64,000 bases of DNA, taken from Echinococcus granulosus. Lineage: Eukaryota; Platyhelminthes; Cestoda; Cyclophyllidea; Taeniidae. The stretch is taken from the NCBI RefSeq assembly GCF_000524195.1, contig NW_020170420.1, forward strand, positions 606,808 to 670,807, read 5' to 3'. Below, piece after piece: positions 17,567 through 45,467 of the stretch (position 1 is the first letter of the stretch; each line of letters begins with the position of its first letter). The notes under the pieces are model-generated. The model did not search any database. It worked only from the letters and a program-made list of their open reading frames with translations, and was not told the origin of the DNA. The position numbers and the translations under genes were made by a program.

Positions 17567-20500
17567 TTACAAGGGTGCATCAAAGGGTCCAGGACTGTAA
17601 CCACGAAACACAAAGGAAGACCTATTCGGCACCAGAGGTGCCCCATTTTTCGAGTTCAAATTTGGATCCGAGGTCCTCCAACGCTCTGAATCAAGATTCG
17701 GCTGCCAAACCGATGTTGTTGGTTGATGATCCAACAGATTTGGCACCGTTGAGTAGAAAGGAGACTGGAAGGAGGATGGATGCTGATTGGTTGGTTCGTA
17801 GTCAGAAGGCATTGAAGATCTCCCAATCGGAGGTGGAGGTGGTTGGGTTGATGTCGGAGAGCTGTAGTAGAGGACACGTTCATAGGCATATTTCACACCG
17901 ATAAGGAAGGCGAGTTGAACGGCATATTGCAGTATGAGAGCGCCAAATCCTCGGTACAGACCAATAAAACCCGAAGCCGAGGAAGATGAATGTCGCAAAA
18001 CGTCAAATGGTCCGTCAAAGGAGGTGATTATAGGGATAACAGAATCACCAGTATCAAGATTATCCACCAGAGTTCTAGTGCCTTGAACACAGAGTCGAAC
18101 AGCAATAGTTTCAAGGGGAAAGAGAATCGCCTCAGAGGTCAGAGAAGCGACAAAATCGGCGGTCAGATCGCTAGTGAAGAGAGAGTAGGCGGCCTGGAGC
18201 ATTTTCTCCCGCCGGTGTGATGTCAAAAGAGTTCGATCGTTTCCATCAATGCCCTTCTGTGACGAAGATGAAGCATCCTGTAGGTGGAAGTAAGATTAAA
18301 AATCTAACATTAGAATACTTGAACTTCTTCAAAAGTACCACCTTTCAGGGTTACCATCTCTACGTGCTGGGAAAGTGCTCCAACACCATTTCAAGCTCAC
18401 AGACAAGATGCTCCCCTTCGGTAACTCGGATAAGTCGGCAATCGGTTAATTCGAGACAGCAGTTAAAGGTTTGATGTGACACATGCGGCCCAAGATTGAA
18501 CGGAAGTTCATCACCTTCTTCTAGAGCGAAAACAAAGTCTCACTTTTCTACTTATCTCCACACTAAGGAGGTTTATCACTCTTCACTCTCCTGGATACAA
18601 TCCGGATGGCCGAAAACTTCCAGGGCTGCATTATCACTTGACCTCTTCAAGTCAAACGGCCAATGCTTAAAGCGCTTCAATGAGAGATTTACCAACTCGT
18701 GTTATCCACGAGGACGAGGGATAAGCGTAACACAAGAAAACACATTCAATCAGTTTAGAAAGCCCTGACAACTGTTTTATTTATGCAGTGGATAATAGGT
18801 GGCGAACTCTGTATCCATTGAGGTGGGGGGGGGGATCAGAAAATAGCCACAGAGCTGAAAAGAGGAACTGGTCAGGGGAGAAATCATGCCGGCCACAAAC
18901 AAGGCAATGTATGAACTGTCAGAGAACTGAGAATGAAAGAAAAAAACTGGACGTTGCTACATGAAGCACCGCAACGGGGCCGAGAAGCTATAGTCGTCAT
19001 AAGGAGGGGGCAAATGGGAGCAAAGCGCGCATACGAGTTGTAAAGTACGACAAGGTAGAAACAAAAAGTTGGTTTTATACGATGCTTCTAGTGGAAAATA
19101 AGGTGATATACAAGGAAGCATGTAGGTACTAGAAAATCACCCAGTCCCCTAAGCCCCCAAGAAGTGCAAAACATCGGTATTTAAATAGAAAAAAATTTCA
19201 TCTCCTCCAGCTGGCCACCAGGCTAAAACGTCCTAGAAGGGAGATGCTTGTTGTAGAGAGCCGAAGCCATGGTGACTGTCAAAACCGCATCAACTTTCGC
19301 CAACTACTCCACCTCCAAGCTACGCATCATAATAAACGGGAATGAGGCTAAAAAAACAAGTCTGGACGGAGTGTCTGCAAACGTCGCCATGAAAACGGCT
19401 ATTCGTGGAGCACAATGAAAGGAAAACTGGGGAACATCCTGTGTTGCAAGAACTTGAGAATGAGGAAATGGGAAAAGAAGACAGGGTGCACTTCGCGTGT
19501 TGTGACTTCCATCCAATGATTTTGTCCCCTAATGAAGGAAGCACAATATTCGTATTCCTCCGAACTCAACGGGCGACTTCAGTTCCCTCGAAAAGTTGTG
19601 ACGACCGAGATAAGAGGGAGTAATCACGAGGAGCGTTGGAGAGGGACTACCACGATTCGGTCTCCACACATGAGGCATGGATCCACCTCCCGTCCCCTCG
19701 AGCTACCTCTTAAGTCCATAATACAGCTACGTGCAGATTTGCACGTTTAGAAAGAACAACATCCAATTTGAGGGAATACATAATTAAATATGTCCTTCAA
19801 ATCACAATTTTGTGCGTACGCTTGAGGATTTCACGCATTTTTTTCCCCAAGCAGAAAGTGTTTTTTCATTAACAAAGTCCTGTTTCAATGTAGAAGTTCA
19901 TTTGTAATACTTTGATAGCTTGTTTACGTCTTCGGGTACTTAAGGCTGGACGGTAATGACCTCCAAGCCCCCGACCCTCATGTACTACGGCAATACAAGT
20001 TCTGCCACACTACGATGACTTTTTACGACTTCAGGGAAAACTCGGAGCGCCACATTGCTGGCCGCCGAAAGCAAATCCCAGTGCAAAGGATATCCATCCC
20101 GATTTGTACAACTGAAGAGGGAAATATGCTGTAGATGAGTGAATCTGTGGCAACTCATAATAGGAGGGTTGAAAATGGNNNNNNNNNNNNNNNNNNNNNN
20201 NNNNNNNNNNNNNNNNNNNNNNNNNNNNNNNNNNNNNNNNNNNNNNNNNNNNNNNNNNNNNNNNNNNNNNNNNNNNNNCGTCTACTTTCGGCAACCAACA
20301 CCCAGTCCTGCGTTCTACAGGAGGGTTATTAACAACCGAGGTGACACTAGCCGTGAGCCACCTAGCAAAGTTCGTTACGAAATTGTCCATGGTACCTGGA
20401 TGAAGATATCAAGTAAGTGAACACGCGGTACCTCCTCCTCCACCCCTCTACTAACTAAACAGAGCCCTGGTAGATATATGGCTGCGCAGTACTGAAGTGA

Positions 20501-34090: not shown

Positions 34091-34468
34091 GCACCCAAGA
34101 CATGCGGTTTAACGAAGTTTCAGGTCATTACATTCACACCGTTTTTTATCACCTTGCCTTTGCCCTGTGATTAAACAAAGACACGCATTGACGATGTCTT
34201 TCAGATTGGTGTAAACAATACCTATATTATTTACTTATTGCTAAAAGTGAGAAATTTCACTCATCAACTTTTGAAATTTGAACAGTGCCTATTATGACCA
34301 CTATCTAGCATATCTTTTAATCAAGAGCTTTCCTCAGCATCCCCATTAAGTCGGGAGTAACAGATTGAATTCTTTGTTAACAGTTACTTATTAAATGGCA
34401 CACTGAACCCAAACACCTAAATAACTCCACGCTAAAATGTGTTTTCTTCCAAATGTTTGAAAGCTAGT

Positions 34469-37400
34469 TTACTCCTCTTCCTCCTCCTCCTCCTCCTCCT
34501 CCTCACTGGAGGGATCTGTGGTGCATGTTTGCATGCACTCCTCATAGGAGTCAAAACGGTTCGCGTTGCCGCCAAACCCGGTGTAGGTGAAGGGAAAGCA
34601 GTTCTTGTCCTTGACGCTATAGTAGAACATCTCGATTTTGTCACTCCCAAGGCCCGGATGGTAGATGTAAGTACACCTTCTGAGAATTTGTCTTTCTACA
34701 GTAAGAAGCAGGGGGATTATAAAGTGGTTACGTGGCAAATAATTGGTGGTAAAGCCGCAAAAGCTGCTTAAGTTCGTGTTTTTGTGTTGAGATTCGTTTG
34801 CCACTGCTTGAGGCGTTATCCGAACCCTAGAGTTAGCCCACTCTCACTTATCACTTACACTTGGAAACATTGCACATTTTCAAAGATAAAACATAAAGCA
34901 GTTGGAAAAAAATGCAATAAGAAACAAAATTTTTAAAAAATACCAACTTACGCTGGTTTTTTTCATCCAAATACACTACAAATAAAGTAAGTAAATGTAT
35001 TAAATACCAAACGCACTCTCTGTGCTACTTATTTGCCTATTTAAGTAATGCTCAAAAGTAGGTTGGTCTATGAAAAATTAAAACTTTGTAAGTAAAATAG
35101 TAACATACCAATCGGTAGTATATCCCCGTGCTTATCTAGATAAAAGTTAAAATAGGAAGTTATTGCCAGTTTTTCTCAGACCACAAAAACCTGGTTTCAA
35201 TGCCTCAGTCTACTCCAATCCGTTCTTTAAAAATAGCAAGAGAAAAAAGGAGTAAAATTTTAGGCATGCAAAGTTAACCTAATTGAAATTATTGTAAGGA
35301 AGAGATTGTATTTTTTAAAAGTGCCTTGCGAACCTTAAACTATCTATCTATTTTTTACTGTTATAATAATTAATTAGGTGATAGTAGTAATCATTTATGG
35401 GGAAATGCAAGGTTTGCGCTGATTACAAAAGTGCCAAACCTCTGGCCCGAGATCAGTTCTTAATGTGCGTGTTACTCACGTTTGTGACCAAGGTGGAAGA
35501 TGTGGCCAATGCTGTCGTACATTACCGAACGAGGAACTAAAAAAAGATGGGGATGAAATACGAGGGAACTCGCACACTCTTGCAAACATTCAAGTAATAA
35601 TTCCAAAAATAATTGAAAAGAAACTGAATTGAATTGAAAAAAAAGTTCGTTTAATCCAAATATTTATTACAAGAAAAGATTTGCCATTTTCTTCCTATCA
35701 CACACTTTGTTTTCCTAAACTCAGTGAGCCTGAGGGGAATGCAAATTCGCAACAATTGAAACATTTTACATTTCTAATTGCCGAAAAAGAAATCAGTACC
35801 TCTATATTGATGTTTCTCATTCTCATCCACCTCGGAATCTAGGACAAAAATCGGAAAAATTTTTATGCTGCTTTTAAATAAGTAGACCATATAATCTGAG
35901 TAACTTAAAATAAGTAAAATATCAAGCCGAAATAAATCAAAAGATCGGCACTAGTCAGTTAATTTTCTTCTCAAATCCTCAATTCTTTCGAAAATACAAA
36001 TAAAATCATTTTGTCAGATTAGAAGTTACTTCGTGTACATCGATGTGATGGTGAAGTGAAAGGTAGGAAAAGAACTTGTTTTTGCCCTTTCGGGATGGTG
36101 GTATTTAAACGTTAATATTAAAAAACGGCTATTAATTAATTGTATAACAACTCCATTTGCCACTGATTTAAATGAAAACTTGCGGTTGATTATGGTTTGT
36201 AGGGCAGGTGATCCCCATAAATTACTGCAAAGTATGTAAGGCGAACAATTGGTAAGGTGAGCTTAATTAGTTAAAAGTGCAGAAAAGAAATCTAAGGACG
36301 CAATCAGTGTTTTTGATTAGTGTGAGAATAAATCACTCACGAGAATCCGTATTGTGATTTGGATGAGAAATGACCCCATTTCAGAAACCAGAATTTTCAC
36401 AAATTTCAAATGGCTTGCCACAGGTGTATGAAATAAGCAAATACCTTTTTTCTAATAACTGTCAAAAATTAGGTATTTGTGGGACGACTACACATCTGCA
36501 TACTTGATGAAGCTTTGATTTTTGTAATAAATAGCTTTTGCTTTTACCTTACCAACCTTTTAGTAGACTTCACGAAATTGAGCAAAAAAGCTTATCTCAA
36601 AGCCTAAAAATAGATGCTTAAATCCCTTCGCTGGTGAACTTTTCGTTGAGCTAACGAAGAAAATCACCTGCAGCTAATTAAAATAAGATTGTTACTCATT
36701 GAGCGGGTTGGTTTTGTAATTAAATCTTGCCAAAGCAACTGAGTAGTTTCGACATTAACATCTATTAGTTTGTAAGTTAGCGGATAAAAAAGTCAAAATT
36801 TCTGGCTCTTACCTAACTGATGCAGATCGCCACCATTTCGAAGGGTCTCATAGTCTTTGGCTGAAACGGAGGATAAGTTTTTCCTTACTTTTGCAAATAT
36901 TCTTGCGTTTTATCAGTTTAAATTAAGTAATCAAGCGCTTTGAAACAAATAACCAGACAATTAATTGTACCACAGGATACCTTACCAATGTTTTCCCAGG
37001 TAAATGCATCTCGATCTTAAATAATGATAGTGTTATTTTTATAATTAAAGACTACTCTCACAGACCTTAAGTATTCTACACCATTAAACTAATGATGCCT
37101 GATTGCCAAAAATTTCTTTTATCCTACTATACACTTTTATTTTACCTTTTCAATCACAAAAATTGACTTGATGACATGCTTACTTAAATTGCGTATGTAC
37201 AGTTTGAGCACAAACTATTTGAGCAAATATTTAAAGTATCACTTACAGAGCCTTTTCGGAGAGTATACAGGAACTCTTCTCACTGTTGTTAAGAGGTTAA
37301 AAAGATTATTCAGCGCTACCGTTTATAAACACTGTTGGGTTGTATTAAAAATTTGCGGAAGAAATTGCCCCGCCTACCGATACAAGCCGTCCCCTTCTAA

Positions 37401-38733
37401 GAACGGGCGCATCCTTTACAATAAATTGCTTTTCTTTACTGCGAATTTGTTTTAAGTATTAATGGTATACTGATTCTTGTACGTGCAGTATATTACTGTG
37501 TTACCTTCTGCAACTCAAGTTTATTTCTGAGCTCTTAAATACTCGTTAAGCGCCAAAAATGATAAATCTGAAATATCCTCTGCAGATAACTCAGACTGTT
37601 GCACACAAGTCTTACCTTCCTTGACTAACTCAACGTAGTTGGGGATTTGTTTCTCAGGCCTCTTATCAATTAACTCTACAAATAACGATGAAAATTTTTC
37701 ATAGATTAAATGTGCAATAAATCCAAATGCGCATGACTTTTTGGTACAATGGCAAGTTAAAGCAATAAAATTTGGTAGCATCACAGCGTAATTTATTATT
37801 TACAAGACCTTTTGAAAGTAAAGCAATGAAAAAGTAATTGCCACAGTGATGTGATATTTGTTTAGGTACTTTAATTACTTGCTATCTTCCTATTAGAAAA
37901 GAATATATTTTTTTCTGTCCCATGGGGGCTTTGCAAAATATACGACTTTCACTTACTAAGTTCAGCATTGGCGAATTTAGCCGCGTTTCCTATTTAATGA
38001 ATAAAATATTAGGTATATGTTAATAGCAACGCATAAATATATCTTCTTTGTAATCAAGGATGGAGGAGCCTTGATTACCCACCTCATATCACTCTCACTC
38101 CGTGCCCCCACCTGCACTAAATTTGGCGAGAAGCCAACTTCTCTTGTAGTACTTAAACCGATTTAAACTTGATTCTCAAAGCAGTCAAGCCCGATTTGCA
38201 TACCGAATGAGTGTGTGTGTGTGTGTGGTAGTGCTGACAAACTGGCGGATGCGTCGCACAGGTCTTTATAACCTACGGCGAGTCATTGCAGTGTGCTAAA
38301 CCGAAATGTGCGCAATCTTTTGTGATTATCTGAGAGTCAACAGAAACCCCCTCAAGCATTTCAACGCATTCCAGCTAAAGTGTCCAACATCTGCTTGATT
38401 TAATTTGGATGCTAGTTAAGAGAGCAGTTGTGTGTCACTTGTATAGTACTTTTAACAAAGCAACGTCAAGTACAGTTTTCCAACTCACCTGAAGGTGGTG
38501 GTGCTCTACCTCGCAAAATACCACCTGCATTTAAAACAAGCACTTTAAATCAAGCATATTTTTTCTACTAATACATGTTCTACAAGTTATAGAGAACTAC
38601 TTCTTTACTCTCTATTATCTTTGCCGCTCTTTGATGTGTCAAAAACGGCGTTTGGAAAAATATTCGTTAACTTACCGGCAAAGATTGGGGTTGAGATAAA
38701 CGCAAGGAGTAGAAGAAAAATGGGGTGCACCAT
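34469..38733 (-). CDS. Secreted Kunitz-domain protein built from phase-1 micro-exons
   Basis: Nine exons join in frame: 38733-38676, 38524-38489, 37989-37957, 37675-37616, 37015-36986, 36860-36813, 35838-35800, 35536-35480 and 34695-34469 (195 residues). Exon 1 encodes a 19-residue signal peptide (MVHPIFLLLLAFISTPIFA). Exons 2-8 are 36, 33, 60, 30, 48, 39 and 57 nt, every one a multiple of three and bounded by phase-1 introns with GT donors and AG acceptors, adding a 101-residue segment of no known fold. Exon 9 carries a Kunitz domain (C128 to C178) and an acidic tail of 11 Glu. Cysteines 1, 3, 5 and 6 are at canonical spacing, while positions 2 and 4 are Gly137 and Phe161. The P1-equivalent residue is Ser138, so trypsin inhibition is unlikely; channel binding or another role is possible. 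A TATA box lies 38 bases upstream. More micro-exons may have been missed. Confidence 0.8.
38211..38227. repeat. (GT)8 microsatellite
   Basis: Simple dinucleotide repeat within intron 2 of the micro-exon Kunitz gene. Confidence 0.9.
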
Positions 38734-38770
38734 AATGAGGGGAGTGGGTGATGAATCCCCATTCCTCTCC

Positions 38771-38778
38771 CTTTTATA
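38771..38778 (-). promoter_or_regulatory. TATA box of the micro-exon Kunitz gene
   Basis: TATAAAAG on the minus strand, 38 bases upstream of the signal-peptide ATG at 38733. This implies a very short 5' leader and a well-defined start site. Confidence 0.6.
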
Positions 38779-39844
38779 CCAACCAGTGTGTCCCTACGGG
38801 GGAGGGTAGAGTTTGCTCCTATTCCATCTTGAGGCAAAGTTGAGGTCGTGTAGAGCCTAATTTGCATACGTCAGGTCATGAAGATTATAAAAGCTTGAGC
38901 TTTAACACTGGAGTTTATTTTTTATAAATTAATATGAATAAGTCTCCTTGTGCATAAATAAAAGTAAAAGCTCAGTCTGTCGTCCCGATTGATCACGATA
39001 TAGCAAGATGGTATTTTGTTGAGTCAACATTTAACCAAATAACCTCTTCAGTCATTGTGGTTTGCTCCTCTATTTTCTGAGTCAACAGCTCCCCACTTTT
39101 CTGAGAGGTGGTAAATCAATCTTCATGCTTAATTAAAGTAATAACCACTTCAAAAGAAGGGACTATGAGCAAAGCGATCTCTTTAATATGGTTAAATTTG
39201 AGGATACAAGATGTATGTCAATAAATTAGATGAAAAGTTGTTCATCAGGTGAAGTTTTTTCGAGACTCATTTATGCTTAAAAAATCACCTAGAAAATTGT
39301 AAGTTTGGGTTTTACTAAGGTTTAAAAATACTTTTATAATTTCTTTAAGAACCTCAAATTTCGTTTTTTTTTGCTTACTGTTTTATTATATGTGATTTGC
39401 ATTTATAAGAGATTTCGAGAACTCATATAATTCATATAAACATGATTAATAGTTTTTTTAAGATGCATCTTTTGTGTTGATCAACTTATTTTAGGAGAAA
39501 AATTTTTCATTTTTCCGATGCTAAGGTCACTGTTGTTTAATCAGCTTCCATATAGCGCAACGTTTTGGATAACATCGCTATGAATTTCACTTTGCTTGGT
39601 AAACTGGTCTTTAAAATGCCAATTTTCGTTAGAACAAGAATTGTATGCTCCTGACTTATTGTCACAACCCCCATTAATGTGCTCCCTTTACGGTTTAAGG
39701 TAATTGACTATCGTAAACTAATAAAGGGCGCAAATCAATGTATAACGCTTGATTGTTGTAACGGACGGTTTAGCACGTGGGCAGAATGAATTAACTCTTG
39801 ATAGGAAAAAATAATTGTTCATTGGGAACACATAGTCGATATTC

Positions 39845-39852
39845 TTATATAA
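39845..39852 (+). promoter_or_regulatory. Candidate TATA box of the plus-strand Kunitz gene
   Basis: TTATATAAT-type element about 100 bases upstream of the signal-peptide ATG at 39947, in the divergent promoter region shared with the minus-strand Kunitz gene. Confidence 0.35.
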
Positions 39853-39946
39853 TTTGGCACTTTGTGAAGTCTGAATTTTTGCTACGCACTATAACCTCTG
39901 GTAGTCCATCTTTGTTATCTGACGGTCTATAACTGGAGGTAAAAGA

Positions 39947-42900
39947 ATGAATAACAAAGCGGCTATGCTGGTGGTACTGTCAACAGCCTTCTCTTTCATC
40001 ACAACAGGAGCAGACTTTGGCAAATGACGCAATCAATTAATCTTCATCCTCCGGTCCTACCCTTAATGACAAAAAGTAGCAGATACTAAGTGATTCACTT
40101 TCACTTGCATTTTTTTTGGTCAAGGTGATAACAAACCTGCTAAACTCTTGTCAGTCACACTCTTGACATTTGATAGCTCATAAATCTGAACAAAAGACAA
40201 ATCACCAATTTGTCGGTAAAGGTGTAGGCTTACTCTGCGGTCGTAACTGTGGATCGCTTCGTGTCTGGGCTTCTTTTCCCATTCAGAGCGTACATGCAGT
40301 AGGCGGTGCTTATGAGTATTCTGAATGGGAAAATACTGCTTATCTTTAGCGTAATTGCCTGGTCTATATTGCTAGATTTAGGGAGGCACCCACGTTTTCT
40401 TAGATGCTACATTTAGGTGCTGTGATTAGGCACGAAATGTCTATTTTCTTACTCAAATTTATGCATCCACCAGCAATTTAGTAAATAAATTAGTGTCTAC
40501 TTGCATTTTTAAGTAACGTGTTATATTGACTTGTCGTGCAATTAATTAGCATCAATCCTTTAACAATTACACAGCAAAAACCTCGGTTGGCATCAAGGAT
40601 CGCAGATTCGCGGTGCTAATTCTAGCTTCTCTTAAAGACTCCTGCCAAGTCCTCTCTGATTTGTTCGTGGGATATAGTTTCTTCTTCACGTAACTCTATG
40701 GTTAAAACTTCACTGACTGCGTACCTTTCCGCTTGTTAAATGCGACTCTGTTGCACCCTTTTTGAAACGAGACTAACATGAAATGCCATTTAATGCTATT
40801 AAGTTAGCAGCCGAACTATTCGGGAAGCGAAATACTCGTTCAATATATACCAGGGCTCTTTAATATCAATTGATTTAAAAGCAATAGTTTTTTACAGGTT
40901 TTCTAAGCTCCTTCATTCACGTTGAAATGACACCCACCTTCCTTAATTAGTTTGCTAACAATGATGTCAATAAAATGGGTAGATTGATAGTATATTGATT
41001 CCCAGAAAGTAGCATTTAAACAAAGCTATTTTGTGAGTTCTGACTGGTGGCATACCATTTTGCCGAATTCGCAACACTCATTGTAATACTTACGTTGTTT
41101 CAATGTACCTTTCAGGGAGGAGACAAACAGGAAATTCGAATCCCGTGACCGGATTGTCCTCTCCCTTACCTAGTGACTGCGGCTCTCCTCCTTCTTGAAC
41201 ATTGTATTTTCCTCTCCATCTTGTCACCTTTAATAAAGATGTCCAAAGCGAATCAACCGGGCTTGTCTAGGAACGCTAGGAATAGGGAAGCGGAGACCGA
41301 CGATTTTCGCTCCATACTCATAAAGTTTTTTTTGGATGTGTAAACAATAGCTGTGGTCCTTGTTTAGTTCCTTCAATAGCGAGACAAACTTTCAGAAATA
41401 ATATTAATCCCTTTATTAAATTCCATCCTGATATCAACTAGGCGTACATACATTATTCTTTTTATTCAAATGAATTCCCACTAGGCAGTAGACTTTAAAT
41501 ATCTCGCCCACTTAACTATGCAGGTTTGCCTCAATCTTCCCTTTGGCTACGAATCCCGCTAAGCGCATTGGCTATGCCATGACATCACTCATTGCTATGC
41601 TTTGCATTTATCCTAAGGGCAAACAGAATGTTATAAATTGGGCTCTGAATACAGGGTTTGTTATATTCAGTAGCATGCGAATGCTTGCCGCTATCATTGT
41701 TGTCGCTTTCATCCTAGCTAATACAGGTACCTCGGTAATGCTGGTCCCGATTTCTATTTTGATAGTACTGACCACTTAACGTCTAGGCTAGAGGCTGAGT
41801 ACTTTGCTTTAAAAGAAACTCTTTATATATCAATTTTTCCTGCTGACAGGTAGACAAAAGATGGATTGTCCTTTGTTTCTTAACATTAAATTCATGTCTC
41901 TAGTAGAAGTGTCCAGCACTCGCCTAGTGAACCCCACAACAAGGCTTTTTAGTCGCGTGCATTTCGAAATTTCCGTCGGTCGTTTTTTTTCCTATACTGC
42001 TTCTAATGACACGCCTTTTATCATATTAATTCTAATACTACGCAGTTTTATCTATTCATCATTTCTTAGATGCCCTGAGGTCCCCTGGCCGTTATATCTA
42101 TCTTCCCCTTCACGGAGGTAAGATATAACTAACAGTACAGATTATTTTAATTTATCGCACAAACCATTCTAAGGTCAGGGATATTTAAAACACATTTTGG
42201 TGCATGGTAATTGGGAAACTAGTGACTCAAGCTTAACTTTGGCCTTGTAAAATAAATGTTCATTTTACCAGTTGTTCATTTCCTTTTGTTTTTCAGCGTT
42301 TTGCGCGAATGACTACAGCAATATTTCATTCATGAGTTCTTCCTAACATTTTAGGTTATATGGGGTATGATGCGGTGGATTCTAGTGATGATGGTCGGTT
42401 TTGCTGATTTAAATAATTATCTTTTATTTACCTTGCTACATCTAGAACTCCAACTGCAGCAAACATCAAGATAAAATTATCACATAATTAACTCTTCAAC
42501 TTTTTGGCTTTATAGTTAAACTTTCTTCAAAAATGCTTTCATAAACTTTCCGCATAGTTTTTCATTATTACTTATCTGTGCCGTTAGCAGCAATATGCAA
42601 CTAGTTTCAAACATGGAATTATTCGAGTTTTTAGTTTAGCCTTAAGCCATATCAGGTCACCTTTTCCTTCTAACAATTAGTTATATTTTTTCCGACTTCC
42701 ATACTGTCATAATTTGTAAAGACAACTCTAGCTTTGAACACTTTAATAGTAGCAAGTTTAACGTTTTTGCTCTTGTGATAGAGGGGAATAATTCTTGATC
42801 ACTTTTGTCTATGCATGTAGACCCGTGCCAGTTGCCCGTCGATCCGGGCCCAGGTCGTGCCTACTTTCCCTCGTACTACTATGATGCTCGCCAAAGCGCA

Positions 42901-42996
42901 TGCCTGCCTTTTGTCTACGGTGGCTTGAAAGGCAATGCCAACAGGTTTAGAAGCATTTACGAGTGCGAGGCCATGTGCATTATCAATAAAGCCTAA
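39947..42996 (+). CDS. Single-domain secreted Kunitz protein lacking the Cys14-Cys38 pair
   Basis: The Kunitz exon (42821-42996, phase-1 AG acceptor) is certain. It has C27, C52, C73 and C77 at canonical spacing, GRAYFPSYYYD after the reactive-site position, and GNANRF before C73. Cysteines 2 and 4 are replaced by Gly36 and Leu60, while the P1-equivalent residue is Arg37, as in trypsin-type inhibitors. The proposed first exon (39947-40019) encodes a hydrophobic signal peptide (MNNKAAMLVVLSTAFSFITT) and ends in phase 1 at a non-canonical GC donor, joining in frame to give 82 residues. That junction is inferred: in the genomic frame a TGA follows within three codons. The product would be secreted. 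It is the divergent partner of the micro-exon Kunitz gene, with about 1.2 kb between start codons. An alternative first exon elsewhere is possible. Confidence 0.65.
41088..41330. repeat. Solo-LTR-like repeat inside the plus-strand Kunitz intron
   Basis: Partner of the 33845-34090 repeat and in the same orientation. Starts with 'tgtaatactta.gttgttt', like the TRIM-like terminal repeats, and contains AATAAA at about 41231. Together the two copies bracket most of the Kunitz pair. Confidence 0.45.
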
Positions 42997-43217
42997 TGCC
43001 ATCCTCGCCCTGTCTCAACCTTCATATCTCGCATTTTCATTAGCTGACTTCACTTTCTTCCTCTTTTAAGGATAAATACATTTCCTTACTGGCAAATTTT
43101 GTTTTAAAATTGGCAAATCCCCATGATTCATAACAGCACTGAAGTTATTTGATACTTGTGCGTATTTAATGCTTGTGTTTGTTATCTTTATGTACATAGG
43201 AAACACCAAAAGAATGG

Positions 43218-45467
43218 TTATTGTAATACATCGGGGAGGGAAAGGAAAGGAGCGAGTTGGGTACTGACGTAGGAGCATGGGTTATTGAAGCGTTTCATAA
43301 CCTTGCCTGGGCTTTGCGACTCTTTGACATCGTCTGCCTCCTGCCCCTCCACCTCCACCGCAGAGACCGGAGTAGTGGAATTTGGACTCTCCTTAGAGAG
43401 TAAGGAATGAACCACTGAAGCACTGTCACAGTAGTGAGAAGTGAGGGTTTTTACCTTGCAGATCTTTTTATGCTTCATGCGACGGTTCTGGAACCAGGTC
43501 TTGACCTAACAATGGCCAAATGTGCCGTGTCATTTGATTTAACAGGCATCTGTCCCCGTGACTTTTAGAAATTGGATGCTTAAAATGCTGCCTAAATGCT
43601 TAAATAACCAATTTTATGCTGATGAAAGACTTTTGACTCATTCGACACTGAGGTGTAATCTTTGGAATCATCAAGGACAGTGATATAAACAATTCATGAA
43701 CCTAATTGGTATTCACGTTAGCATGTGTATCTTTGCAACAATTATCTTGTATTTTTTGCGCAAAATATAAAAGGCAACTTTTAAACTTGAGCGCCACAAA
43801 CCTGGGCTTCCGACAGTCCCAGAACGGAGGCGAGTTCGATCCTCTCCGGTGTTGAGAGATACCTCTGTCTTTGAAAGCGCAGTTCTAATTCCGAGAGCTG
43901 CTGATCACTGAAAACAGTGCGTGCCTTGCGTCGTCGACAGCGTTTTAGCACAGCCGAGGTGCAGGCTCCCGGAAACGCAAAAATTGAAAGCGGAGCTACT
44001 GAAATGGGAGCGTGAAGTACTAGTAGCATGAGCCAATTTTAGATTACAAAATTTGGTAACAGAATTTATGTCCCGAAAAAGCCGTTTATGAATGAAGGGG
44101 AAAAAGATGGTCGCAAAAAATAGTAGTGGCTCAAAAAACGAGCTTTTGCCTATAAATCCCTACCCAATGTTGCGGGGATCCGCACAGAATAGCTCCATCA
44201 GGTAAGGTCAATGATAGGATGCAGCAATGACTTGTTGGAAGTCAGCACTTCGAATCAACATCTCTACATTATTCTAAGCATCCTTTGCATGGCTCGAAGA
44301 GCTAATTTAACCCAACTCATACGAATCAAAGCCATGTGATAAAAGTCAAAATTGAGGCGGCGGCCGAATTTTCATAAGCCCTGTATACCTAGCCATTTGC
44401 TCCCTACGGCAAGACTTTACTCCTTCTCATACAGCAGACAGGTTTTAAGAGTAGATAGGGAAATTTTCTACTTAAATACTTCCTTATAATTGACCTCTTA
44501 GCTCCTCTTACTTGAATCTCTTGAACAAGTGTTGGAGACGGCAGTAATATATCTACAGGGGAGCTTGTCAGCAATCTCAAACTGTCGCAAGTGCCTACAG
44601 TTAAAGCGGCTATAACTAACATACTTTTAGCTACCTAATAAATTTGTTTCGGTGGTGGCAGAGGCAACTCAATAACCACAGTCCAGAGGTTCTATTGGTC
44701 TGGAATGGCCCCGATTTCCATCCACGTTTTCAGCTAATTTAATTGGTGTCCACAGGCTAAAAGCAGAAAACTACAACCAAAAACTGTCAGACAACTGCAG
44801 ATACTAAAAACTGGTAGGAAATACAGGCCGTACTGTTGTGACATGCGGTCTAATATACTTCAGGTGTCACATATGTGTGACGCTGGTAGCAAACGTGTCC
44901 GTAAACTGATCTAGGACAAATTATGCATGCATTCAGTAATTTTTGCGTGTACATTTAGAAGCACAACAAAGCGATGCTTGATTTAAATTCAAAAACTTTA
45001 TTTACTTATGTGTCAAGGTTGACCTATCATTGCCCTGGTTTCTATCATCCTATGGGCTATTTTGGTGCGAAATCACGTCCAATGACCACTTAAAGGCAAA
45101 TTTTATCAACTTATTATGCAAAAAAATTATAATTTTCTTCCTAATTTTATCAATTTTTGGTGTTATTTATTCAATGGTAATTTCAGGAGCCACTCTTACC
45201 CGAGTTCTTCATAAAGTAAGGCAAAAGGAAACACTCGGTGGGGAACATGGCACCAATCTTCTGCTCACTCGCAGTCAAATGAATGTGTGGATTCACTTCG
45301 CAGAGAAACGAGGATACTGCTGCATTTGTTGCCCTCTGCACTGATCCCATGTCGGGTTTATCCGCGCCTTTGTCTACCGTCCCACTCAGAATGTTGTCAA
45401 TGGAGAAACCCGATTTCGAAGTCAACCTTGCCTTCCTTGTTACCCTCTCCTGACGCGCAGTCTCCAT
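43218..45467 (-). CDS. bsx: Brain-specific homeobox transcription factor Bsx/Bsh
   Basis: Three exons join in phase: 45467-45200, 43998-43802 and 43505-43218 (250 residues). The homeodomain spans residues 111-170. It starts [11 protein letters not shown], contains [20 protein letters not shown], and is split between residues 46 and 47 by a 296-nt intron before [14 protein letters not shown]; Trp48, Phe49, Gln50, Asn51 and Arg53 of the recognition helix are all present. The core is that of the BSX/Bsh family. Exon 1 encodes FSIDNILSG (21-29), an EH1-type Groucho-binding motif near the N-terminus, as in BSX proteins. The C-terminal ~80 residues after the homeodomain include an acidic stretch and are read through a weak donor-like GTAAAA after KKICK, so an extra 3' exon is possible. 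The family is a nuclear DNA-binding regulator of neural and neurosecretory fate. Confidence 0.9.
44863..44898. repeat. GTGTCAC-type palindrome with 'gctggtagcaaacgtgt' tail
   Basis: Inside bsx intron 1. Matches the right-end signature of the TTAA-bounded elements at 24.3-24.7 kb, but the terminal TTAA has decayed. Confidence 0.5.

What the first reader, a model, noticed from the sequence alone, without database searches (positions are those of the whole stretch)
34469..38733. Kunitz gene assembled from seven tandem phase-1 micro-exons
Between a signal-peptide exon and a Kunitz exon, seven exons of 30-60 nt can be placed, each a multiple of three and each flanked by phase-1 introns with canonical GT and AG ends. 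Symmetric micro-exons let a secreted protein vary by skipping any exon without losing frame. This is the defining feature of schistosome and tapeworm micro-exon genes (MEGs), but a MEG-type array fused to a Kunitz domain is, as far as I know, unusual. The chance that seven arbitrary GT-AG intervals all fit one phase is small.
Basis: partly seen in the sequence, partly recalled or inferred. Interest (0 to 1): 0.85.

Follow-up and report, generated by a model that had tools for sequence, protein, structure and literature searches.

The report
Tapeworm Kunitz gene with nine micro-exons
A tapeworm gene for a secreted Kunitz-type protein places nine tiny exons, each a multiple of three bases, between its signal peptide and its folded domain, so that exons could be left out without breaking the reading frame; the layout is real and mostly kept in another tapeworm genus, but it has not been shown here that exons are skipped.

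Summary
The array is real, and longer than reported. On the minus strand (38733-34469), nine symmetric phase-1 micro-exons of 24-60 nt, not seven, lie between a signal-peptide exon and a Kunitz exon; a 30-60 nt range would leave out the last two (27 and 24 nt). All exon peptides are letter-identical to a database protein of Echinococcus granulosus (P0001). An E. multilocularis protein carries all nine; a Taenia solium protein carries eight (61 of 108 residues identical). A splice-site scan finds 7 phase-1 candidates against a shuffle maximum of 2 (0 of 200). The gene meets the published tapeworm operational definition of a micro-exon gene, but not a stricter schistosome description. Skipping is structurally possible (504 of 512 exon subsets without a junction stop) but not shown; a second database model uses exons 1, 4, 6 and 11 only, and is probably a prediction. 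The gene is catalogued as a Kunitz inhibitor (EGR_05482 / EmuJ_000077700); ten full-text searches surfaced no paper on its micro-exons. Nearest precedent: SmVAL6. New variant of a known kind.

The parts
38772..38778 (-). TATA-box-like site; first base 45 nt upstream of the gene A start codon
   Evidence: Sequence TATAAAA at 38778 (the distance of 43 printed there for gene A is two too small, 38778 minus 38733 is 45); function inferred
38676..38733 (-). Gene A exon 1 (58 nt): signal peptide; ends phase 1
   Evidence: identical to P0001 residues 1-19. Signal-peptide reading is by eye
38489..38524 (-). Micro-exon 2 (36 nt)
   Evidence: in P0001, P0002, P0003
37957..37989 (-). Micro-exon 3 (33 nt)
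   Evidence: in P0001, P0002; as aligned, 5 of 11 residues identical and 3 extra residues in P0003
37616..37675 (-). Micro-exon 4 (60 nt)
   Evidence: in P0001-P0004
37247..37282 (-). Micro-exon 5 (36 nt); absent from the T. solium model
   Evidence: in P0001, P0002 only
36813..36860 (-). Micro-exon 6 (48 nt)
   Evidence: in P0001-P0004
35800..35838 (-). Micro-exon 7 (39 nt); weakest donor (gtactg)
   Evidence: in P0001-P0003
35480..35536 (-). Micro-exon 8 (57 nt)
   Evidence: in P0001-P0003
35109..35135 (-).
   Evidence: in P0001-P0003 (3 of 9 residues identical in P0003)
34952..34975 (-).
   Evidence: in P0001-P0003
34469..34695 (-). Exon 11 (227 nt with stop): Kunitz domain lacking the Cys14-Cys38 pair, then an acidic Glu tail
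   Evidence: PF00014 E 7.7e-13; identical to P0001; cysteine numbering by comparison with BPTI from memory
41675..41726 (+). Divergent neighbour gene B, signal-peptide exon
   Evidence: peptide in P0005; P0006 (T. solium) begins at the matching place
42070..42117 (+). Gene B micro-exon 2 (48 nt, phase 1)
   Evidence: in P0005, absent from P0006
42355..42393 (+). Gene B micro-exon 3 (39 nt, phase 1; donor gtcggt)
   Evidence: Read (first took its end three bases too far); peptide in P0005, diverged counterpart in P0006
42821..42996 (+). Gene B Kunitz exon, also without Cys14 and Cys38

Best explanation
Gene A is an intact 11-exon gene of an Echinococcus tapeworm, with no second copy found. It encodes a secreted one-domain Kunitz protein of 214 residues whose 120-residue, cysteine-free N-terminal part is built from nine symmetric phase-1 micro-exons, that is, a MEG-type array joined to a Kunitz domain. 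Shown: the exon layout, its match to database proteins of three species, and the frame-keeping property. Inferred: exon 1 is essentially the signal peptide, so cleavage at the exon 1/2 border would leave a mature protein beginning with whichever micro-exon is used; exon skipping would change this N-terminal segment while leaving signal peptide and Kunitz domain untouched. The domain has lost the Cys14-Cys38 pair next to the inhibitory loop, so it is more likely a binder or channel-type Kunitz than a classical trypsin inhibitor (inference, by recalled analogy with conkunitzin-S1, which lacks the same bridge).
For: Exon-by-exon identity to P0001. Eight micro-exons retained in T. solium at 61 of 108 identical residues, against 49 of 65 for the Kunitz exon. 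Shuffle test 0 of 200. One DNA match in the genome, itself, and no micro-exon match elsewhere below E 1. No 4-kb segment away from gene A exceeds 3 candidates, against 6 on it (294 of 318 segment-strands of the window and 14 Kunitz regions, 24 rich in N dropped). 504 of 512 exon subsets give no junction stop. Olson et al. 2020 MEG rule met: 11 exons, 9 micro-exons under 70 nt, one run of nine. P0004 joins exons 1, 4, 6 and 11 at exactly these borders.
Against: No transcript evidence for any junction was reachable; the database proteins seen are gene predictions as far as can be told. P0004 may be a predictor's shortcut rather than an isoform. Some exons are individually weak in T. solium (exon 3: 5 of 11; exon 7: 6 of 13; exon 9: 3 of 9) and exon 5 is absent there. 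In a published table EGR_05482 (taken as P0004 from its length of 130 aa) had 1, 2, 0 and 0 reads in four stages, so expression is barely documented. One junction (5 to 11) makes a stop. The AlphaFold model was uninformative (mean pLDDT 33).
Confidence: 0.8

Rival explanations
1. Constitutive micro-exons: the nine exons are real but always included, giving one 214-residue protein. The exon symmetry only reflects the phase-1 habit of extracellular-module genes.
For: Phase 1 before the Kunitz domain is common in this genome (best site in 20 of the 25 loci with an open acceptor-like site, of 40). Eight micro-exons are kept in T. solium in order, and the form with all nine is the E. granulosus and E. 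multilocularis protein.
Against: P0004 is a shorter model of the same gene. The T. solium model lacks exon 5. Schistosome MEGs of similar design are spliced differentially (PMC3597483 passages).
Confidence: 0.45
2. Prediction artefact: micro-exons were threaded through introns by gene finders and by eye.
For: All support is from gene models; three exons score low with a generic splice matrix; one scan candidate (35729-35706) was false.
Against: The peptides of all nine micro-exons were in the query, before any database protein had been seen, and matched P0001 letter for letter. A Taenia protein keeps eight of nine. Shuffles never reach the count.
Confidence: 0.04
3. The array arose by tandem duplication of one exon, or is a relic shared by all tapeworm Kunitz genes.
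For: Neighbour gene B has two phase-1 micro-exons in the same place.
Against: No direct repeats of 24 nt or more in 34400-43000; micro-exon peptides have no other match in the genome below E 1 (which also misses gene A's own shortest exons); no comparable array in the other Kunitz regions scanned.
Confidence: 0.1

Closest known systems
Micro-exon genes (MEGs) of schistosomes and tapeworms (as in Olson et al. 2020, PMC7653826)
   Same: Signal-peptide exon, long run of small symmetric exons, frame-keeping skipping possible, flatworm parasite; meets that paper's numeric rule (passages). Exon sizes lie within the 6-81 bp range given for S. mansoni MEGs (PMC10526429, passages).
   Different: Carries a recognised folded domain (Kunitz); exons of 24-60 nt are larger than the 15 bp said to be commonest in S. 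mansoni MEGs; micro-exons are 360 of 645 coding nt (56%), not about 75%.
SmVAL6 of Schistosoma mansoni
   Same: A known protein-family domain plus a stretch of small symmetric exons, proposed to be a VAL-MEG composite (PMC4350168, passages); alternatively spliced outside the domain (PMC7957364, passages).
   Different: Different domain (SCP/TAPS), different class (trematode), and the spliced exons lie 3' of the domain; here they lie 5'.
EgKU / EgKI monodomain Kunitz family of Echinococcus
   Same: Signal peptide plus one Kunitz domain; secreted family with protease inhibitors and channel blockers (PMC5325619, abstract and passages). A phase-1 intron before the domain is common among Kunitz loci of this genome.
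   Different: [quoted passage not shown] gene A inserts 120 micro-exon residues and lacks the Cys14-Cys38 pair.
Conkunitzin-S1 (cone snail)
   Same: Two-disulfide Kunitz fold without the Cys14-Cys38 bridge (recalled; its missing Cys14 is mentioned in PMC5325619).
   Different: Sequence similarity to gene A is only that of many Kunitz domains (E 1.2e-6); no micro-exons known to me.

Membership tests
MEG, operational rule of Olson et al. 2020 | At least seven exons | tested here: met
   11 coding exons; rule read
MEG, operational rule of Olson et al. [quoted passage not shown]
   9 of 11
MEG, operational rule of Olson et al. [quoted passage not shown]
   Run of nine
MEG, stricter schistosome description | Micro-exons <36 bp making up about 75% of the sequence | tested here: not met
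   Exons <36 nt: 3 of 9 (33, 27, 24 nt). All micro-exons together 360 of 645 nt; description from PMC3597483 passages. PMC10526429 passages give a wider 6-81 bp range
MEG | Signal peptide | tested here: inconclusive
   Hydrophobic N-terminus ending in FA at the exon border, by eye; no signal-peptide predictor was run
MEG | Differential splicing of micro-exons in transcripts | not testable with these tools
   No RNA data; P0004 is a database protein with exons 1, 4, 6, 11 only
Kunitz/BPTI domain family (PF00014) | Profile match above the curated cut-off | tested here: met
   P0001: 52.6 bits against 21
Classical inhibitory Kunitz domain | Six cysteines including the Cys14-Cys38 pair | tested here: not met
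   Four cysteines; positions 14 and 38 are Gly and Phe in Echinococcus, Gly and Ile in T. solium (numbering recalled)

The most novel reading that the evidence does not exclude
Gene A is a combinatorially spliced Kunitz gene: a conserved two-disulfide Kunitz head is secreted behind many alternative N-terminal segments assembled from nine micro-exons, giving a tapeworm a pool of related secreted proteins from a single locus. It would be a tapeworm case of MEG-type splicing grafted on to a known domain, parallel to SmVAL6 in schistosomes.
Probability: 0.35. Interest if true: 0.65.

Novelty: new variant of a known kind. Interest (0 to 1): 0.48.

Why it matters
What the variable parts of MEG proteins do is little known (PMC7263636 and PMC7653826, passages). 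Here the possibly variable part is attached to a well-understood domain, in a gene kept across Echinococcus and Taenia. If skipping is real, one could measure whether swapping N-terminal segments changes binding or antibody recognition of an otherwise constant domain. It also suggests that catalogued Kunitz proteins in these species (for example the 130-residue EGR_05482 model) may miss most of their small coding exons.

Tried and rejected
Structure prediction of P0001 with its three-sequence alignment failed (mean pLDDT 33, low over the Kunitz part too), so no fold search was run. A Kunitz-domain tree was too weak to place gene A: 30 domains (26 of the 40 other hits, 14 dropped, mostly partial or weak; genes A and B; two from T. 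solium), 53 columns, 17 of 27 inner forks open; the Eg-Ts pair of gene A is solid (100/100) but on a long branch. The idea that the exons are duplicates of each other found no repeats of 24 nt or more. A sigma-70 promoter scan is not meaningful for a worm and is ignored. A profile search for relatives beyond taeniids returned the four known proteins and one Kunitz protein of Cyprideis torosa (5 at E <= 0.01 of 1069 candidates); this search needs shared 5-letter words, so absence from other cestodes is not shown. NCBIfam gave nothing useful. The genome search with P0001 did not pick up gene A's own exons 7, 9 and 10 as matches of their own, so it would also miss such exons in a relative; the splice scan of other Kunitz regions cuts some upstream stretches at locus ends.

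That the micro-exons are not in print rests on ten paper searches with capped listings. The 10 papers holding both 'Kunitz' and 'micro-exon' are Schistosoma work by title or abstract; I saw matched passages in 5 of them (PMC7263636, PMC13219023, PMC3597483, PMC12058154, and PMC7959349, the last for micro-exon terms only), and those passages show no Kunitz MEG. Tsai et al. 2013 and DeMarco et al. 2010 are not held and no supplements could be read, so gene A may sit in an unread MEG table.

Full report
What was checked. The finding names seven symmetric phase-1 micro-exons between a signal exon and a Kunitz exon at 34469-38733 on the minus strand. I read the sequence, searched the whole genome for Kunitz domains (42 matches, two of them in this window), wrote a simple splice-site scorer with a generic matrix, and tested the array against shuffles, relatives and published definitions.

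The exons. Reading GT/AG borders by eye with phase 1 gave eleven coding exons: 58, 36, 33, 60, 36, 48, 39, 57, 27, 24 and 227 nt. The nine inner ones are all multiples of three. Nine of ten donors match GTRAGT at 5 or 6 of 6 positions; exon 7 has gtactg. All nine exons are open in phase 1; five of nine are open in phase 0 and two of nine in phase 2.

Chance. In the 4-kb stretch between the two end exons the scan finds 7 phase-1 candidates at threshold 5 (5, 3 and 3 at thresholds 6, 7 and 8); 200 dinucleotide shuffles have a mean of 0.27 and maximum of 2 at threshold 5, and none reaches the observed count at any of the four thresholds. The opposite strand gives 1 at threshold 5. By the listing, one of the seven (35729-35706) is not an exon of P0001, and exons 3, 5 and 7 score too low to be counted, so the scan is neither clean nor complete; the weight of the case lies in the relatives.

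Relatives. The exon peptides, kept apart by X, were searched against 5.8 billion proteins. Four proteins matched at E <= 1 among 43 candidates. P0001 (E. granulosus, 214 aa) contains every exon peptide letter for letter, with exactly one junction residue between neighbours, so the window is E. granulosus or a very close relative (inference). P0002 (E. multilocularis, 210 aa) contains all nine micro-exons with 109 of 120 residues identical and 68 of 71 in the Kunitz exon. P0003 (T. solium, 182 aa) contains eight of nine with 61 of 108 aligned residues identical and lacks exon 5; exons 3, 7 and 9 are weak taken singly (5 of 11, 6 of 13, 3 of 9). Its Kunitz exon is 49 of 65 identical, and its signal exon is mostly missing from the model. 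P0004 (E. granulosus, 130 aa) is the same gene with exons 1, 4, 6 and 11 only, joined at exactly these borders. All of these look like gene predictions; their agreement across two genera is nevertheless hard to explain unless the micro-exons are coding.

Uniqueness. The gene's DNA has one match in the whole genome, itself. P0001 has 32 matches at E <= 10: outside the locus they are to the Kunitz part only, apart from one weak hit at E 1.64 that reaches into the micro-exon part. Short exons are hard to find in this way: exons 7, 9 and 10 of gene A itself were not listed on their own, so a diverged second array is not excluded by it. Sliding a 4-kb window over this window and 14 fetched Kunitz regions gave at most 3 candidates away from gene A, against 6 on it (294 of 318 segment-strands scored, 24 with many N dropped). 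No direct repeats of 24 nt or more lie in 34400-43000, so the exons do not look like recent duplicates.

The neighbour. A second Kunitz gene (gene B) lies head to head at 41675-42996 on the plus strand, with a signal exon, two phase-1 micro-exons (48 and 39 nt) and a Kunitz exon. Its peptides are in P0005 (E. granulosus, with one different residue in the Kunitz domain) and partly in P0006 (T. solium), which lacks the 48-nt exon. The T. solium partners of genes A and B carry consecutive locus numbers (TsM_001125600 and TsM_001125700) and list the same longest contig length, 177,859, so the pair is probably kept together there (inference). Both genes have a TATA-like site before the ATG, 45 nt in gene A and 43 nt in gene B by coordinates. 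Both Kunitz domains lack Cys14 and Cys38.

Published record. A 2021 survey of Echinococcus Kunitz genes lists EGR_05482 (130 aa; 1, 2, 0 and 0 reads in adult, oncosphere, protoscolex and cyst membrane) and EmuJ_000077700.1 (210 residues by its percentages), which I take to be P0004 and P0002 from their lengths (PMC8684439, sections 5 and 6 and passages). Words beginning with exon, intron or splic do not occur in its main text. The same paper notes ten sequences that lost the second cysteine and places these two near mamba toxins in a tree. [quoted passage not shown]

How it probably works. Shown: the layout, its conservation, and that 504 of 512 exon subsets give no stop at a junction; the only junction that makes a stop is exon 5 to exon 11 (TAA). 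Inferred: exon 1 is the signal peptide, so any of those subsets of exons 2-10 would leave secretion and the Kunitz fold intact and change only a cysteine-free, slightly basic N-terminal stretch (120 residues, net charge +3). Whether the animal uses this freedom is open. I put about 0.35 on real combinatorial splicing and 0.45 on constitutive inclusion; the remainder is lesser variation or the other rivals.

Is it a MEG? By the rule used in the Hymenolepis genome paper (exons under 70 nt and divisible by three, at least seven exons, at least half micro, a run of four) it is. By a stricter schistosome description (<36 bp, about 75% of length; PMC3597483, passages) it is not: 3 of 9 micro-exons are under 36 nt, and all nine make up 360 of 645 nt. 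Another paper gives 6-81 bp as the range for S. mansoni MEGs (PMC10526429, passages), which gene A fits. The Hymenolepis paper counts 35 MEGs in E. multilocularis and does not use the word Kunitz in its text; gene A may be among them, which I could not check. SmVAL6 is the nearest precedent for a domain joined to such an array (PMC4350168 and PMC7957364, passages), with the array on the other side of the domain.

Verdict. Real, correctly placed, longer than reported, mostly conserved in order; a domain-bearing MEG-type gene that is catalogued but, in the ten searches made, not found described as such. Interest is moderate until transcripts are seen.

Noticed in passing
41675-42996 (+): Divergent second Kunitz gene with two phase-1 micro-exons; its E. 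granulosus protein P0005 begins upstream of the TATA-like site, probably a wrong start.
   Followed up: partly
34520-34680 (-) and 42823-42980 (+): Both Kunitz domains lack Cys14 and Cys38 while keeping the other four cysteines; the T. solium counterparts lack them too.
   Followed up: partly
34472-34504: GAG/CTC triplet repeat (11 copies) encodes a C-terminal run of Glu: 11 in E. granulosus P0001, 7 in E. multilocularis P0002, none in the T. solium protein P0003.
   Followed up: no
43799-43930 (-) and about 43460-43509 (-): Homeodomain (PF00046, E 3.2e-11, positions 1-44), with the rest of the domain in a separate downstream exon read by eye; the Kunitz pair sits beside a homeobox gene.
   Followed up: partly
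17567-18295 (-): Open frame with a mitochondrial carrier domain (PF00153, E 4.6e-7).
   Followed up: no
G000:C200:164591-164746: Another Kunitz domain that lacks Cys14 but keeps Cys38.
   Followed up: no
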